Of a stretch of 44,550 nt of DNA, positions 21,786 to 34,427 are shown piece after piece. Within the stretch, counting starts at the first letter, position 1. Every line of letters starts with the position of its first letter. The notes beneath the pieces were generated by a model. The model saw nothing but the letters and a program-made list of their open reading frames with translations, had not been told where the DNA came from and searched no databases. This stretch comes from OM182 bacterium MED-G24. Lineage in GTDB: Bacteria > Pseudomonadota > Gammaproteobacteria > Pseudomonadales > Azotimanducaceae. Where the stretch lies: positions 1 through 44,550 of the forward strand of contig NTKD01000009.1 in NCBI GenBank assembly GCA_002457275.1, in the 5' to 3' direction. A program made the position numbers and the translations under genes.

Positions 21786-23102
21786 GTGACAGAACCAGAT
21801 AACAGCCGATTTGTTTTGGCCTACGGTCAAGGTGAGCTTGAAGTCTCGCTGCCCGGCCATGTCGATGTGACGACCATCCAGAAGCTGCCCTTTGACCGCT
21901 CGCAGCACTCGGAACTGGGACTCGTGCGACAGGCACTTGAGGCGCCAGTCAATGCCGACCCCCTGGGTCAAATGGCACGTGGCGCAACCTCGGCCTGCAT
22001 TGCTATCTGTGACATCACACGACCCGTTCCAAATCACCGGTTTTTGAGGCCGATCATCAACGAACTGCTCATTGCGGGGGTGCCCAGGGATGGGATCACT
22101 ATTCTCGTGGCGACAGGTCTTCATAGACGTAACGAGGGTGATGAGCTGAGAGAGCTGATTGGCGATGAGTGGGTCGTAGAGAATATTCGTATCAGGAATC
22201 ATGACGCCCGCGTTGATGATGATCATGTGTTTCTTGGCGAGACCGCGACCCGGCAGACTCCGGTCGGGATCGATCGAACGTTTGTGGACGCCGATATCCG
22301 TATCGTCACAGGATTGGTGGAGCCTCACTTCATGGCCGGATATTCCGGTGGACGGAAGGTCATCGCGCCTGGCGTCGCCCACCACAAGACAATCCGGACC
22401 TTTCATTCGGCGCGATTCATGGAACATCCGCGCGCGACGTCCTGTGTTCTCGACGGCAATCCACTGCATGAGGAACAGCTCGAGATTCTCAAGATGTTGC
22501 CACGGGCAGAAACACCACAAGGGCGGGTGCTCGCATTCAATACGGTGATCGATGATCAGCGACGTCTGGTGTTTGCGAACTTTGGCGAAGTGGTCGAGAG
22601 CCATCTGGCGGCGGTCGATGTCATGCGCCGCTCCGCAGAGGTCAGGGTGGGACGTAAATTTCGCACCGTAGTGACATCGTCTGCGGGATATCCCCTCGAC
22701 AAGACCTACTACCAGACAGTCAAAGGCATGGTCACCCCGCTGGATATCCTCGAACCAGGTGGCACATTGATTATTGCGAGCGAATGTTCGGAGGGTATGG
22801 GTTCCGAGCACTACCAGAACGCGCAACGACGACTGCTGGATAATCGTGACGGGTTCCTGCCGGACCTGCTGGCGAAGGATCTGGCGGACATCGACGAGTG
22901 GCAGACTGAACAGCAGGTGAAGTCACAGTACATGGCACGCGTGCAGCTCTACTCGGAGGGTTTGTCCGACACAGATCATGCGCTGACCGGTGTTGAGCGA
23001 GTTGACGACATTGCGGCGGCTATCCTTGCAAGTGTTGAAGCGTGCGGTGATCCAGCGGTGGCGGTGATTCCGGAGGGACCTTACGTCGTGCCGTTTGCAT
23101 GA
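21786..23102 (+). CDS. LarA-like (nickel-dependent lactate racemase family) protein
   Basis: A 438-residue protein of the LarA superfamily. Conserved patches are IAICDITRPVPNH, LVATGLHRRN, and VEPHFMAGYSGGRKVIAPGV, which carries the His and the Lys that in LarA tethers the nickel-pincer cofactor. LarA homologues racemise or epimerise different 2-hydroxy acids. No larB, larC or larE for cofactor synthesis lies in the window, so cofactor supply must come from elsewhere or the protein uses none. The start is GTG 21786, after a 31-base gap from the previous gene. Confidence 0.85.
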   Translation: MTEPDNSRFVLAYGQGELEVSLPGHVDVTTIQKLPFDRSQHSELGLVRQALEAPVNADPLGQMARGATSACIAICDITRPVPNHRFLRPIINELLIAGVPRDGITILVATGLHRRNEGDELRELIGDEWVVENIRIRNHDARVDDDHVFLGETATRQTPVGIDRTFVDADIRIVTGLVEPHFMAGYSGGRKVIAPGVAHHKTIRTFHSARFMEHPRATSCVLDGNPLHEEQLEILKMLPRAETPQGRVLAFNTVIDDQRRLVFANFGEVVESHLAAVDVMRRSAEVRVGRKFRTVVTSSAGYPLDKTYYQTVKGMVTPLDILEPGGTLIIASECSEGMGSEHYQNAQRRLLDNRDGFLPDLLAKDLADIDEWQTEQQVKSQYMARVQLYSEGLSDTDHALTGVERVDDIAAAILASVEACGDPAVAVIPEGPYVVPFA

Positions 23103-23159
23103 CATCGGGGGCCAGCGTAAAACACATCGAGTGTATTCGGTAGAAACTGTGAGTTGCCA

Positions 23160-23987
23160 ATGAGTTCTTACTCCGAACCAGATACCTACTGCCAGACTAC
23201 ATTGAATTACGCCGGTGCGGTGGAATACGACCCGGTGCTGGTGGACATTGGTGATGCCCGATCGGTAACCCCGGCCCCTTCTTTCGACACGCACGGCTTC
23301 TGCCTGGTGCAACACGCTTCGAGGGTGACCGACTGGCGTGACGAAGCGCTCGTCAATCGGATTCATCCACCAGAGATTGCTGACCTTGCGCGAAAGACGA
23401 CTGGCGCTGATCACGCTGTCGTATACCCCGCGCTGGTGCGCACCCCCCTCACGGCGGCCTCCGAAGCCGACTACGCCCCGATCGAATCGGTACACAGTGA
23501 CTACACGGGCGACTATCGGAAAATGGTTACCAACCCAGACCATACGTATCAGGATTTCCTGGGCCCGGCGCTCACGGAAAATGGCCTGTCAGTAGATGAT
23601 GTGGTCAAGGCGTCTCGAATACTGGTGATTCAGTTCTGGCGGAACATCGGAGAACAGTATCCGGATCGGCCACTTGCTATTTGTGAACCGGAGAGTACCC
23701 GGCTTGATGAAATGATCCCTATCAAAGTGCCTGAGTACGGGGGACAACGTTTGGACTTTGAAGTGTTTGCCGTTCGTACCCCGCCGGATCCGGAACGCCA
23801 TCACTGGTTTACTTATCCCGGCATGCTCCTTGATGAGGTGTTGTGTTTCAAAACCTACGACAGTCTGTTTGAAGATGAGAGGAGTGCGTTCTGGACACCG
23901 CACAGCGCATTTCGTGATCCCAACGTGAGCCGGGATGCCCCCGCACGGGAAAGTGTCGAGATGCGTGCACTCTGCCTTTTCAGATAG
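23160..23987 (+). CDS. CmcJ/NvfI family oxygenase-like protein
   Basis: A 275-residue protein matching the CmcJ/NvfI group, which includes cephamycin CmcJ and fungal Fe/2OG oxygenases and isomerases. Motifs are ESVHSDYTG (His and Asp in the metal-site position), VIQFWRNIGE with PLAICEPEST, YPGMLLDEVLCFKTYDS, and TPHSAFRDPNVSRDAPARESVEMR at the end. The group commonly modifies secondary metabolites. TTG 23154 opens the frame, but ATG 23160 is the likelier start. It closes the SDR, unknown, LarA-like cluster. Confidence 0.85.
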   Translation: MSSYSEPDTYCQTTLNYAGAVEYDPVLVDIGDARSVTPAPSFDTHGFCLVQHASRVTDWRDEALVNRIHPPEIADLARKTTGADHAVVYPALVRTPLTAASEADYAPIESVHSDYTGDYRKMVTNPDHTYQDFLGPALTENGLSVDDVVKASRILVIQFWRNIGEQYPDRPLAICEPESTRLDEMIPIKVPEYGGQRLDFEVFAVRTPPDPERHHWFTYPGMLLDEVLCFKTYDSLFEDERSAFWTPHSAFRDPNVSRDAPARESVEMRALCLFR

Positions 23988-24034
23988 CAGCTAACGGTCG
24001 GGGATATCTTCCGGGCTCAGCGTCTCTGACGAGA

Positions 24035-24451
24035 CTACGCAAAGTAGTCCCGTTTCCAGAAAATCACTGCCAAAAATGCCGCACTGACGACGAGTGGGAT
24101 AAGTATTTGCGGCAGCCCCAGGGTATCGCTGACAGTCACAAGCGCAACAAACGTATTCAGTACAAATATCCCCAGGTAGGCGTAGGCCCAAAGAGGAGCC
24201 CAGGGCTTTCTGAGCCAAAGGGCGACGAGAAAAGCCACTGGCCCGATGAAGTCCAGCAAAACAGCAAAAGACACCGCGGCGACCCCATCGATGAACGTGC
24301 TGAACAAGGGTAGGCCGTTCTCGTTCGGGTTAGGCAGGTTCATCACAGTACCCAGCATCCAGAGGACCTAGACAACAAAGAGAATCTTGAGCGGCAACGG
24401 GATGGCCTTCCATCCGGTGCGACTTGGTTCAACTGTTGATGATTGTGACAT
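24035..24451 (-). pseudogene. Four-helix membrane protein interrupted by TAG
   Basis: From ATG 24451 the frame reads 27 residues, then TAG (24368-24370), then VLWMLGTVMNLP and the rest of a hydrophobic protein ending WKRDYFA at 24035. The stop falls in the first of about four membrane helices (ILFVV*VLWMLG). Without it the protein would have 138 residues. A shorter product from ATG 24358 would lack most of helix 1. It is the last gene of the ArsR-AHSA1 relic group, a place where small membrane proteins often occur. The family is not recognised. Confidence 0.7.
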
Positions 24452-24471
24452 ACGGTTTACTCTCTATTGCG

Positions 24472-24955
24472 TCAGGCCGACAGAATCTCATCGATGATCG
24501 TATAGCCGGTGCCCCAGCCACCACTTATGCCATCCTTCATCTCCGCGAAGCAGGCGATCTCTGCGTCAGTGGCATCGGGCGGGACCTGCGTGACGTCACG
24601 CTCGTGCCTTCGTCTGTCTCGTCAAACGTGACAGTCGTGAGCAGAATGCGTGGCCAGTCGGGCATCATCGGGTTTGCCGCGGTATTCCACTCGGCATCAG
24701 CAGAACAGTGTTGCCAGACCAATCGTTCGGGCTAGGTGACTTCCTGGAAGATCATTTTCTGGTAGTTGGAGCCACTGTTCATTTTCATCTCGGTCAGCCA
24801 GACGCCGCCCGGATACAGTTCGAACTTGTGGATTACCGTTCGACACCTGGTCCGTACCATCGGAGCAGAAGGTCCGGGTCGGTCCAGGCGCGCTAGACCA
24901 GGTCCCGGGGGGCGTTGAAGATTCGTGTGAAAACGAATTCAGGCAGCTCAGACAT
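24472..24955 (-). pseudogene. AHSA1/SRPBCC domain protein pseudogene
   Basis: Reading through the lesions gives a typical AHSA1-type SRPBCC protein of about 160 residues: MSELPEFVFTRIFNAPRDLV, RAWTDPDLLLRWYGPGVE, FELYPGGVWLTEMKM, FDETDEGTSVT and DGISGGWGTGYTIIDEIL. The lesions are TAG at 24893-24895 (expected Trp of DLVWRAW), one lost base near 24840, TAG at 24732-24734, and another lost base near 24595. With four lesions this is real decay. It overlaps the end of the ArsR gene at 24948, the standard order of ArsR-AHSA1 operons. Confidence 0.9.
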
Positions 24956-25325
24956 TGTTGCCTTCCTTGGGTTTCTCCAAATGAAGTTGTGTGAGCAAGG
25001 CATCGAGCTGATCAAAGCTTGTGCCCCACAATGGTCTGAAATCCACGAGCCAGTTGACGGCAGCAAGCAGGGTGTCTGCTTTCAGGCGCGCGGGCCTACG
25101 TTGCTGATCGACATCCCGCTCCACGAGACCGTCTTTCTCCAGCACTTTGAGATTGCGGGAAATGGCAGGTTGGCTGATATCAAAGGGCTTAGCGAGCTCT
25201 GTGACGGAGGCTTCGCCCTGGATGAGATTGGACAGGATGGCGCGTCGGGTACCTTCGGCGAGCGCGTGAAATACCGAGTCCAGCTGAGTCGGGTCTTAGG
25301 ATCGTGTATAACCAGATTGTTCCAT
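24948..25325 (-). pseudogene. ArsR-family regulator with TAA at codon 10
   Basis: From ATG 25325 the frame meets TAA at 25296-25298 after nine codons, then continues uninterrupted: DPTQLDSVFHALAEGTRRAIL, the winged helix (SVTELAKPFDISQPAISRNLKVLEKDGLVERD), and a C-terminal helix to 24948. No ATG, GTG or TTG lies between the stop and the DNA-binding domain, so the regulator is probably lost unless an unusual CTG start works. It matches the ArsR type that represses its own operon with an AHSA1 gene. The operator-like palindrome overlaps the start codon. Confidence 0.8.
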
Positions 25326-25339
25326 AACTATATGGTTAT
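25324..25339. promoter_or_regulatory. ArsR-type operator palindrome
   Basis: ATAACTATATGGTTAT is a palindrome with 14 of 16 positions symmetric (arms ATAAC/GTTAT). It covers the start of the ArsR gene, where autorepressors of ArsR-AHSA1 operons bind. It is still intact although all downstream genes are broken. Confidence 0.5.
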
Positions 25340-25490
25340 TCAATGTGAAGGTACTGGCAATCCGGGGATGGAAGCCTTGGCCTGTTGGGTTTGGCGTCTG
25401 ATCCGAAAGCCGAGATAGAACAGGGAGGCGACCACTGCGAGCGCACCGAGGATTTCACCGACCGCACCGATTCGCGTCCCAGTCCAACAT
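25340..25490 (-). pseudogene. Remnant of a membrane-anchored protein N-terminus
   Basis: From ATG 25490 the frame reads MLDWDANR and closes; one base over, it reads IGAVGEILGALAVVASLFYL followed by an Arg-rich end (FRIRRQTQQAK) and TGA at 25340-25342. The combined sequence is the classic opening of unknown proteins with one membrane helix and a basic motif. An extra A around 25470 explains the shift. The rest of the gene is absent, replaced by the ArsR promoter. Confidence 0.55.
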
Positions 25491-33229: not shown

Positions 33230-34427
33230 CTAGTCGGATTCAGTACCCTGCTGCGCCGCTTTTGCGACCGCAGCACGCCGTACCGTCTCCCGATCAAACA
33301 TTTCCGCGTATGTTCTTCCAGCGTATTGAGACCGAGGGATAGTCGACGCTCGTTAACGTTCGCCGGGTCCTCAATCGGAAATGGTACTGGCCACCCATCG
33401 TCATCCTCATCAAATTGTGTACCGTAGATCTGTGGTTGTTCATAGGCACCCGGTAATTCGGTCCGGATCTGATCGACGATCTGTTCTGCGATGTCTGTCT
33501 GTAATGTCAGGATGTTGGTGAGTTCGCCATCAAAGGCGGCGGACCAGAGTTGAACGCCGCTGCCACCATCGATCAACTGCGCCGTAACACGTACCTGGTT
33601 TCCGGATTTCTGTACGCTACCTTGTACAACATGTGATATCGATAACTCGTCTGCAACGTCGATGGCATTCAGGTTCTGGTCCCTAAACTGAAACGAGGAC
33701 ATACGAGCGATGACCGGGATGGTATTCTTTCGCACCAACGCATTGAGGATTTCTTCTGTAACGCCGTCTCCAAAATACTGGTGGCCGGCTTCGCTACTCA
33801 TACTGTCAAATGGCAGCACGGCGATGGCGGCTTTCGGTGGGGGATAGCCTCGCTTGTTGGCAGATTCAGTTAGAGTCCGACACCTGCCATGAGCACGACA
33901 CTCACGATGGCTGCCTAGATCATCCCCAGCCATCTTTTCCCCGAGAATCCCCTGGTCGTGCCCGATGCCGCGGGAACGCGCGCACCGGCATCGGTGATCT
34001 TGAGATGCTCTGATAACCCCCGCATCAGTTTCCCTAAATAAGCGTCATAGCCCATGTCTTCAACGAGTATGGCTTGTTTTTTTGAGAGTCGAAGCGACGG
34101 ACCGGGTGGTAACTCGGTGTCCTCCAGGTGTACGGCGACGACGGGAATGTCCCGATCAAGCGCATAACTGACTTCATCCTGGCAATGCCCGGAGGCAGTC
34201 GATCGGGGTGTCACGAATAGGATCATTACCGCGGCGCAGGTGATCGCGGAGACGAGTTCGTCGGACCATCGTCTACCGGCGCTGATGCTTTAGTCATACC
34301 AGACGTTCAGTCCACCGGCATTCAGTCGTTCGAGCTCCGGGTAGACGGCTGCAGCATCGTCGTGTGCATACGACACAAATACGTAGGGTTCGTCACCCAG
34401 GTAGGCTGGAAATGGCTTTTCCGCCAT
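33230..34427 (-). pseudogene. TIR domain - TM helix - TolB-like domain protein, pseudogene
   Basis: From ATG 34427 the frame reads a TIR domain start (EPYVFVSYAHDDAAAVYPEL, NAGGLNVWYD), TAA at 34290-34292, then SISAGRRWSDELVSAI, ILFVTPRSTASGHCQDE with the Cys-x-x-Glu region typical of TIR enzymes, and a membrane helix broken by TAG (33915-33917) and a TAA. After a one-base shift near 33855 it continues with a TolB-like N-terminal domain (AAIAVLPFDSMSSEAG, DGVTEEILNAL, ISHVVQGSVQKSGNQVRV). A further one-base shift near 33310 leads to a natural-looking end (TYAEMFDRETVRRAAVAKAA) and TAG at 33230. The open frame continuing to 33061 past that shift is noise. TIR-TM-TolB/TPR proteins are signalling or possible defence proteins. 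Confidence 0.85.

What the first reader, a model, noticed from the sequence alone, without database searches (positions are those of the whole stretch)
33230..34427. Decayed TIR - membrane helix - TolB-like signalling protein
One gene once joined a TIR domain, a membrane helix and a TolB-like domain. It is now broken by TAA, TAG, a second TAA and two one-base shifts, each readable in the sequence. TIR domains in bacteria often act as NADases in defence or signalling; a membrane-anchored form with a TolB-like sensor domain is little described. The intact relative elsewhere could be a system of interest.
Basis: partly seen in the sequence, partly recalled or inferred. Interest (0 to 1): 0.65.

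Follow-up and report, generated by a model that had tools for sequence, protein, structure and literature searches.

The report
Broken TIR membrane receptor gene relic
This is the wreck of a bacterial membrane-receptor gene whose inner end was a TIR signalling domain, fused by a deletion to the tail of a second dead gene; intact relatives with a CadC-like sensor half occur in related uncultured bacteria and could be tested.

Summary
The lesions are real: on the minus strand 34427-33230 there is a TIR domain cut by TAA, a membrane segment with TAG and TAA, a frame change, a TolB-like domain, and a second frame change. But this is two dead genes, not one. The TIR-membrane-TolB part (34427 to about 33445) is the front of a TIR-TM-TolB-TPR protein whose TPR half is missing. 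The last ~210 bases are the tail of a DUF6624 gene; 11 DUF6624 loci inspected elsewhere carry no TolB-like or TIR match. Intact receptor relatives exist (six of 594-799 aa examined closely). In an AlphaFold model of one, the TolB+TPR half matches the periplasmic domain of CadC and the first domain matches TIR domains including NADases; the Glu at the catalytic position is present in 84 of 84 aligned TIRs and in this relic. So the ancestor was most likely a CadC-type membrane sensor with TIR in place of the DNA-binding output. The TIR subfamily is strongly expanded in this bacterial family (19 or more matches in one genome), with mixed sensor partners. The three TolB-like copies found in this genome are all broken. 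Function of intact forms is untested. The relic is ordinary; the intact family is moderately interesting.

The parts
34293..34427 (-). TIR domain, first piece (from ATG to the TAA); includes FVSYAH and WYD motifs
   Evidence: Pfam TIR_2 E 0.0093, below cut-off; aligned to relatives without a gap
34290..34292 (-). in-frame TAA inside the TIR, at a column that is Glu in 54 of 60 and 77 of 84 relatives (not the catalytic Glu)
33990..34289 (-). TIR domain, second piece; Pfam TIR_2 E 7e-9
34173..34175 (-). codon of the Glu at the TIR catalytic position (S..S..C..E motif), still GAA
   Evidence: column is Glu in 60 of 60 and 84 of 84 relatives
33873..33932 (-). remnant of the membrane helix, crossed by TAG 33915-33917 and followed by TAA 33870-33872
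   Evidence: five of the six close relatives have a hydrophobic segment at this place (L010 does not)
33835..33886 (-). stretch in which the reading frame changes between membrane segment and TolB-like part
   Evidence: frame-aware alignment to L005 and L020
33448..33834 (-). TolB N-domain/FlgO-like part of the sensor
   Evidence: (G000:C86:33454-33828, E 2.1e-48)
33439..33447 (-). approximate deletion junction: receptor TPR half and front of the DUF6624 gene missing
   Evidence: DUF6624 homology starts at 33438; homology to L005 ends at 33448; L020 and L017 alignments run a few residues further, to 33436 and 33418
33230..33438 (-). C-terminal tail of a DUF6624 gene, itself with a frame change, ending at TAG 33230-33232

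Best explanation
It is a dead locus made of two gene remnants. Shown: the front of a TIR - membrane helix - TolB-like - TPR receptor gene, broken by three stops and a frame change, joined at about 33440 to the frame-broken tail of a DUF6624 gene; the TPR half and the front of DUF6624 are gone. It can make no complete protein. Inferred (about even odds): the intact protein sits in the inner membrane with TolB+TPR in the periplasm and TIR inside, as CadC does with its DNA-binding domain; a periplasmic signal changes oligomeric state, TIR domains come together, and the assembled TIR cleaves NAD+, giving either a nucleotide signal or NAD+ depletion.
For: Stops and frame change against three intact relatives; DUF6624 tail, and DUF6624 loci without TolB or TIR; intact relatives of 594-799 aa with TIR_2 first and TPR last, hydrophobic segment in five of these six; AlphaFold model of L025 (mean pLDDT 84.6, pTM 0.64) whose residues from about 141 or 210 to 535 match the CadC periplasmic domain (3ly8, 3ly7, 3ly9, 3lya are Foldseek ranks 1-4; Z 15.8-16.1 over 294-302 residues) and whose residues about 11-148 match TIRs including SARM1, SPARTA and RUN1; Glu at the catalytic position in 60 of 60 and 84 of 84 aligned TIRs. 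The two other TolB-like copies found in this genome are broken too: L002 changes frame at about 367 and its homology ends at about 908; L003 lacks the front, is joined to an APH-like stretch and is crossed by a stop.
Against: The genome is an 86-contig, 85%-complete assembly, so reads that would confirm each lesion were not available. Topology was not computed; it rests on the CadC match. NADase activity, signal and output are untested. TM-score to CadC is modest (0.55-0.58 by target length), and unrelated TPR chains (APC/C subunits, Z 16.0-16.9) score as high as CadC. L010, one of the six close relatives, shows no membrane helix at the expected place.
Confidence: 0.72

Rival explanations
1. 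One reading: one ancestral gene TIR-TM-TolB with a DUF6624-like tail as a real C-terminal domain, now decayed.
For: TolB and the DUF6624 tail are in the same frame at the junction, which by chance happens one time in three.
Against: Only positions 118-162 of 173 of DUF6624 are present. Apart from the relic, the DUF6624 matches listed in 206 family and 293 order genomes lie in open frames of 91-339 aa; in the 11 such loci that I fetched, the three longest frames included, no frame matches the TolB or TIR profile at E up to 1. No other receptor locus fetched carries the tail.
Confidence: 0.06
2. Sequencing or assembly errors in an intact gene.
For: Metagenome-type assembly of 86 contigs; no reads at hand.
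Against: Five lesions plus a missing TPR half within 1.2 kb, while 73% of the window lies under stop-free stretches of 250 codons or more in some frame (the relic's own 327-codon frame is in that count) and 9 of 10 neighbouring frames scanned have Pfam matches at 1e-5. The two other TolB-like copies found in the genome are broken as well.
Confidence: 0.06
3. Mechanism rival: in the intact relatives TIR is a non-enzymatic docking domain that recruits partner TIR proteins rather than an NADase.
For: Best PDB sequence matches of the six-row profile are animal Toll-like receptor TIRs, which signal by docking (recalled); many TIR proteins coexist in one genome.
Against: The Glu column is invariant in 84 of 84; with 84 rows, chains named NAD+ hydrolase (AbTIR, SARM1) match as well. 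Toll-like receptors also carry a Glu at the aligned place in the alignments, so the Glu alone does not decide.
Confidence: 0.3
4. The remaining fragments are still expressed and useful (for example a TIR fragment from the internal ATG), or the stops are read through.
For: Internal open frames of 103 and 290 aa with ATG exist.
Against: The TIR is cut inside its fold, both TAA and TAG would have to be read, and a frame change and loss of TPR remain.
Confidence: 0.03

Closest known systems
CadC (ToxR-like one-component membrane regulator), periplasmic domain PDB 3ly7, 3ly8, 3ly9, 3lya
   Same: Periplasmic-type half with an N-terminal alpha/beta domain followed by helical repeats; Foldseek ranks 1-4 for the model of an intact relative, Z about 16 over about 300 residues.
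   Different: CadC carries a winged-helix DNA-binding output (recalled); here the output is TIR. At least two relatives carry both (L010 by Pfam; L114 by eye).
Bacterial TIR NADases (AbTir, SpbK, Cat1, TIR-SAVED, SPARTA TIR)
   Same: TIR fold and a conserved Glu that aligns with a Glu of Cat1.
   Different: Those act with cytoplasmic sensors (recalled); here the sensor half looks periplasmic. Activity not tested.
TolB/FlgO-TPR proteins with cyclase, winged-helix or multi-helix N-termini
   Same: Same TolB-like and TPR half, found in the same bacterial family; cyclase-annotated examples on Rhizobium plasmids (4 of the 10 rows shown).
   Different: Different N-terminal output.
Animal Toll-like receptors
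   Same: TIR, one membrane helix, outer sensor (topology of the bacterial form inferred).
   Different: Order inverted; sensor is TolB-TPR or a propeller, not LRR; no evidence of common descent of the whole architecture.

Membership tests
TIR domain family (PF13676) | Pfam match over the curated cut-off | tested here: met
   Second TIR piece 36.6 bits against cut-off 28; first piece alone 16.9, under it. 60 of 60 relatives match at E up to 0.001.
TIR NADase | Glu at the catalytic position | tested here: met
   GAA codon 34173-34175 in the relic; 60 of 60 and 84 of 84 relatives. That this column is the catalytic one is recalled; alignments shown include Cat1 but not AbTir or SARM1.
TIR NADase | NAD+ cleavage | not testable with these tools
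   Needs protein.
CadC-type one-component regulator | periplasmic domain of the CadC fold | tested here: met
   Model of intact relative L025; TPR chains of unrelated proteins score as high. The relic keeps only the first part.
CadC-type one-component regulator | N-terminal winged-helix DNA-binding domain | tested here: not met
   Five of six close relatives, and the relic, start with TIR; L010 has both. Trans_reg_C in 2 of 60 relatives.
Thoeris / CBASS / other known TIR defence systems | fixed partner gene next to the TIR gene | tested here: inconclusive
   The 10 window neighbours scanned look metabolic or structural. Neighbours recurring around 28 hand-picked loci, two of them overlapping, look generic by eye: beta-lactamase-like in 7 loci, SDR in 5, acyl-CoA dehydrogenase in 4. 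No direct search for ThsA-type partners was made.
Thoeris / CBASS / other known TIR defence systems | match to PADLOC models | tested here: inconclusive
   SAVED_TIR model matched by 21 and the commonest ThsB model by 17 of 60 members, best E 5e-11: TIR-level resemblance.
DUF6624 (PF20329), for the tail | full domain over the cut-off | tested here: not met
   25.6 bits and 26.1 bits against 27, positions 118-162 of 173: a remnant.
Toll-like receptor | LRR ectodomain | tested here: not met
   No LRR in the Pfam list of L025 (A); its model matches CadC and TPR chains.

The most novel reading that the evidence does not exclude
The intact relatives are a lineage-expanded, fast-turning-over set of bacterial Toll-like receptors: periplasmic sensors (TolB-TPR, beta-propeller, or FGE-type) plugged into one cytoplasmic TIR subfamily that turns envelope signals, perhaps from phage or rivals, into NAD+-derived signals or cell shutdown; the window records the loss of that set in a shrinking genome.
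Probability: 0.22. Interest if true: 0.72.

Novelty: new variant of a known kind. Interest (0 to 1): 0.38.

Why it matters
The relic itself makes nothing. It points to intact membrane proteins in which a TIR domain takes the place of the DNA-binding output of CadC-type sensors, with 19 or more TIR matches in one genome. If those TIRs are NADases, envelope sensing would be wired directly to NAD+ signalling in bacteria, a link I did not see described in the listings of seven paper searches. It is directly testable with L025-type proteins in a laboratory strain.

Tried and rejected
One-gene reading: rejected, see the DUF6624 evidence. Defence operon: no telling partner among neighbours that recur around 28 loci picked by hand out of the 79 (clusters in fewer than 3 loci were not looked at; L033 and L042 overlap, so one of the 7 beta-lactamase-like loci is probably counted twice). 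Empty or intact orthologous site in kin: the same-genus genome G001 lacks the OsmC neighbour, so no site comparison was made; its one TIR match is a TIR-membrane protein whose frame ends just after the helix (L125, TIR 43% identical to the relic's). Phages and plasmids as carriers: 1 phage record with a TIR-only match; 542 plasmid records, of which I saw 10 rows: 8 cover only the TolB side of the query, 2 cover 80% or more of it. The TolB-like profile against PDB sequences: nothing at E 0.01, found only by fold. Tree of TolB domains: 126 columns, 40 of 66 inner branches unresolved; TIR versus no TIR needs 9 changes on it, so output swapping is suggested, not proven; it also held L143, the window's own copy, as an unlabelled row. 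The second AlphaFold job (TIR alone, pLDDT 90.4) was not searched further. The conserved FV.Y.H of the TIRs comes partly from the search pattern and is not used as evidence; the Glu column is not in that pattern.

Limits of counts: at most 19 first-look candidates per genome were scored (G003 had 48), so 19 matches is a floor; at most 10 were scored. The 60 proteins were picked from the loci for longer frames, most Bacillota ones and short frames left out; the 84 TIRs are 84 of the 90 listed (four of L042, one of L088 and one of L100 dropped).

Papers: search listings only, except passages found by term in PMC7075850 (no TPR, TolB, adenylate cyclase or propeller mention in the main text), PMC8195603 (12 of 27 places shown), PMC7159879 (TolB once, in a reference) and PMC12847820. 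Searches list 20 of 73 and 20 of 94 papers. Most subscription journals are not in that library.

Full report
What is there. The window is one whole contig (C86) of a 2.09 Mb, 86-contig, 85% complete genome. On the minus strand, from ATG 34427, the sequence reads as a TIR domain that meets TAA at 34290-34292, goes on as TIR to about 33990, meets TAG 33915-33917 inside a hydrophobic stretch and TAA 33870-33872 behind it, changes frame between about 33886 and 33835, and continues as a TolB-like domain to about 33448. Frame-aware alignment gave 46, 41 and 42% identity to relatives L005, L020 and L006 over this stretch. The Glu at the TIR catalytic position is codon 34173-34175; the first stop lies at another conserved column (Glu in 54 of 60 and 77 of 84 relatives). 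That this Glu is the catalytic one is recalled knowledge of TIR NADases; the alignments printed (five of 34 matches) show it opposite a Glu in Cat1, in a chain named TIR domain protein (7uxr) and in three Toll-like receptor chains.

Two genes, not one. Below about 33440 the same frame gives QPQIYGTQFDEDDDGWPVPFPIEDPANVNERR..., which Pfam calls the C-terminal part of DUF6624 (1e-5, 25.6 bits against a cut-off of 27, positions 119-162 of 173). DUF6624 genes elsewhere carry the same tail at 71-78% identity (L136, L137, L140, L141, L142) or 48-54% (L134, L135, L138) over about 40 residues. L137 continues with SEMRVRETARREAVSRANEEGGTLETSD, which by eye resembles what the relic reads in another frame, AEMFDRETVRRAAVAKAAQQGTESD: the second frame change. 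DUF6624 is rare: 7 of 206 family genomes and 11 of 293 order genomes, both counts including the window's own. In 11 DUF6624 loci fetched, the longest frames included, no open frame of 60 aa or more matches the TolB or TIR profile at E up to 1. So a deletion most likely removed the receptor's TPR half and the DUF6624 front and joined the rest. With intact proteins from 13 loci as queries (frames over 450 aa), no match to the window at E up to 1e-4 runs into a TPR half.

Relatives. The TolB piece matches 60 of 145 related genomes and a wider TolB profile 76 of 206 family genomes at E up to 1e-15, own genome included. Nearest in TolB are L005 (594 aa open frame, 56%) and L006 (799 aa, 55%), both TIR proteins; nearest in TIR by score is L020/L025 (704 aa, 53%). 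Pfam gives TIR_2 and TPR in all seven proteins scanned. Named copies come mostly from uncultured Gammaproteobacteria or Pseudomonadales (G003:C143 has the length of JASMJM010000143.1), others from Woeseiaceae, Parvularculaceae, Opitutia, Chloroflexi and Clostridia (79 loci). With the TIR profile at E up to 1e-25, 30 of 206 family genomes match by my count of the table, against 1 of 398, itself, in a phylum-wide sample. One genome (G003) has 19 matches at E up to 0.001, the most that were scored. Among 110 rows at E up to 1e-30 (counted by hand), 5 have a stop inside the TIR, the window being one.

Partners are mixed. Of 60 TIR proteins (set, hand-picked), all match TIR_2; the commonest TPR family is matched by 25, PD40 propeller by 7, FGE-sulfatase by 7, FlgO by 7, a winged helix by 2 (which does not name the members). 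Four frames in a row in L042 (1564-10931) read by eye as TIR-membrane-propeller proteins; in G260 five TIR matches lie within about 10 kb. L072 from Seongchinamella unica has TIR followed by what I read by eye as a cyclase and an NTPase. Proteins without TIR that share the TolB-TPR half carry winged-helix, cyclase, LuxR-type or multi-helix fronts (names by eye; by small profiles: of 68 labelled rows 38 have TIR, 18 multi-helix, 3 winged-helix, 3 cyclase, 6 none of these, in a sample that was partly fetched by TIR). The TolB tree needs 9 TIR/no-TIR changes but is poorly resolved.

How it would have worked. The AlphaFold model of L025 shows a TIR (about 1-146), a helix at 165-183, an alpha/beta domain (about 210-340) and helical repeats (356-697). 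Foldseek ranks the CadC periplasmic domain first to fourth (E 3e-7 to 1.5e-6). VIA-align gives Z 15.8-16.1 over 294-302 residues for four CadC entries of 318-323 residues, about 14-16 for TIR domains of SARM1, SPARTA, RUN1 and others, and about 14 for the N-terminal domain of TolB; unrelated TPR chains of the APC/C reach 16-17, so the repeat part is not specific. Thus 'TolB-like' means the N-terminal domain fold, not the propeller. From this I infer a CadC-like membrane sensor with a TIR output. That TIR assembly is needed for NADase activity is reported for SpbK (passages of PMC12847820); applying it here is inference.

Why dead rather than misread. Multiple lesions plus a missing half; 73% of the window under long stop-free stretches; Pfam matches in 9 of 10 neighbours scanned; and decay of the other two TolB-like copies found in the genome: L002 switches frame at about 367, L003 lacks its front, is joined to an APH-like stretch and has a stop within its homology. 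The 2.09 Mb assembly is smaller than most relatives listed, in keeping with loss, though it is incomplete.

Verdict. Observation mostly right in its letters, wrong in its unit. The relic is ordinary; the intact family is a new variant of known kinds (TIR output on a CadC-type sensor) and worth a bench test. No paper on it showed up in the searches listed, which do not cover most subscription journals.

Noticed in passing
L002 (G000:C6:1-2183) and L003 (G000:C16:16017-19223): The only two other TolB-like copies found in the window's genome are also broken: one changes frame, the other lacks its front and is joined to an APH-like phosphotransferase stretch.
   Followed up: partly
L042:1564-10931 (CATOTI010000001.1) and L033: Run of four TIR - membrane helix genes whose outer part reads by eye as a PD40-type propeller: a receptor array with a different sensor.
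   Followed up: partly
L045:8001-10628, L073:376-2961: TIR - membrane helix proteins of about 860-880 aa whose outer part reads by eye as FGE-sulfatase-like plus a hydrolase.
   Followed up: no
L010:442-2715, L114:412-1956: Proteins that carry both a winged-helix DNA-binding domain and a TIR in front of the TolB-like part (L010 by Pfam, L114 by eye).
   Followed up: no
L125:1270-2145 (same genus as the window): TIR plus membrane helix, frame ends just behind the helix with no periplasmic domain: either a short form or another truncation.
   Followed up: partly
window 22923-25418: About 2.5 kb with short or overlapping open frames; four of them have no Pfam match at 0.001; possible further decayed genes.
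   Followed up: no
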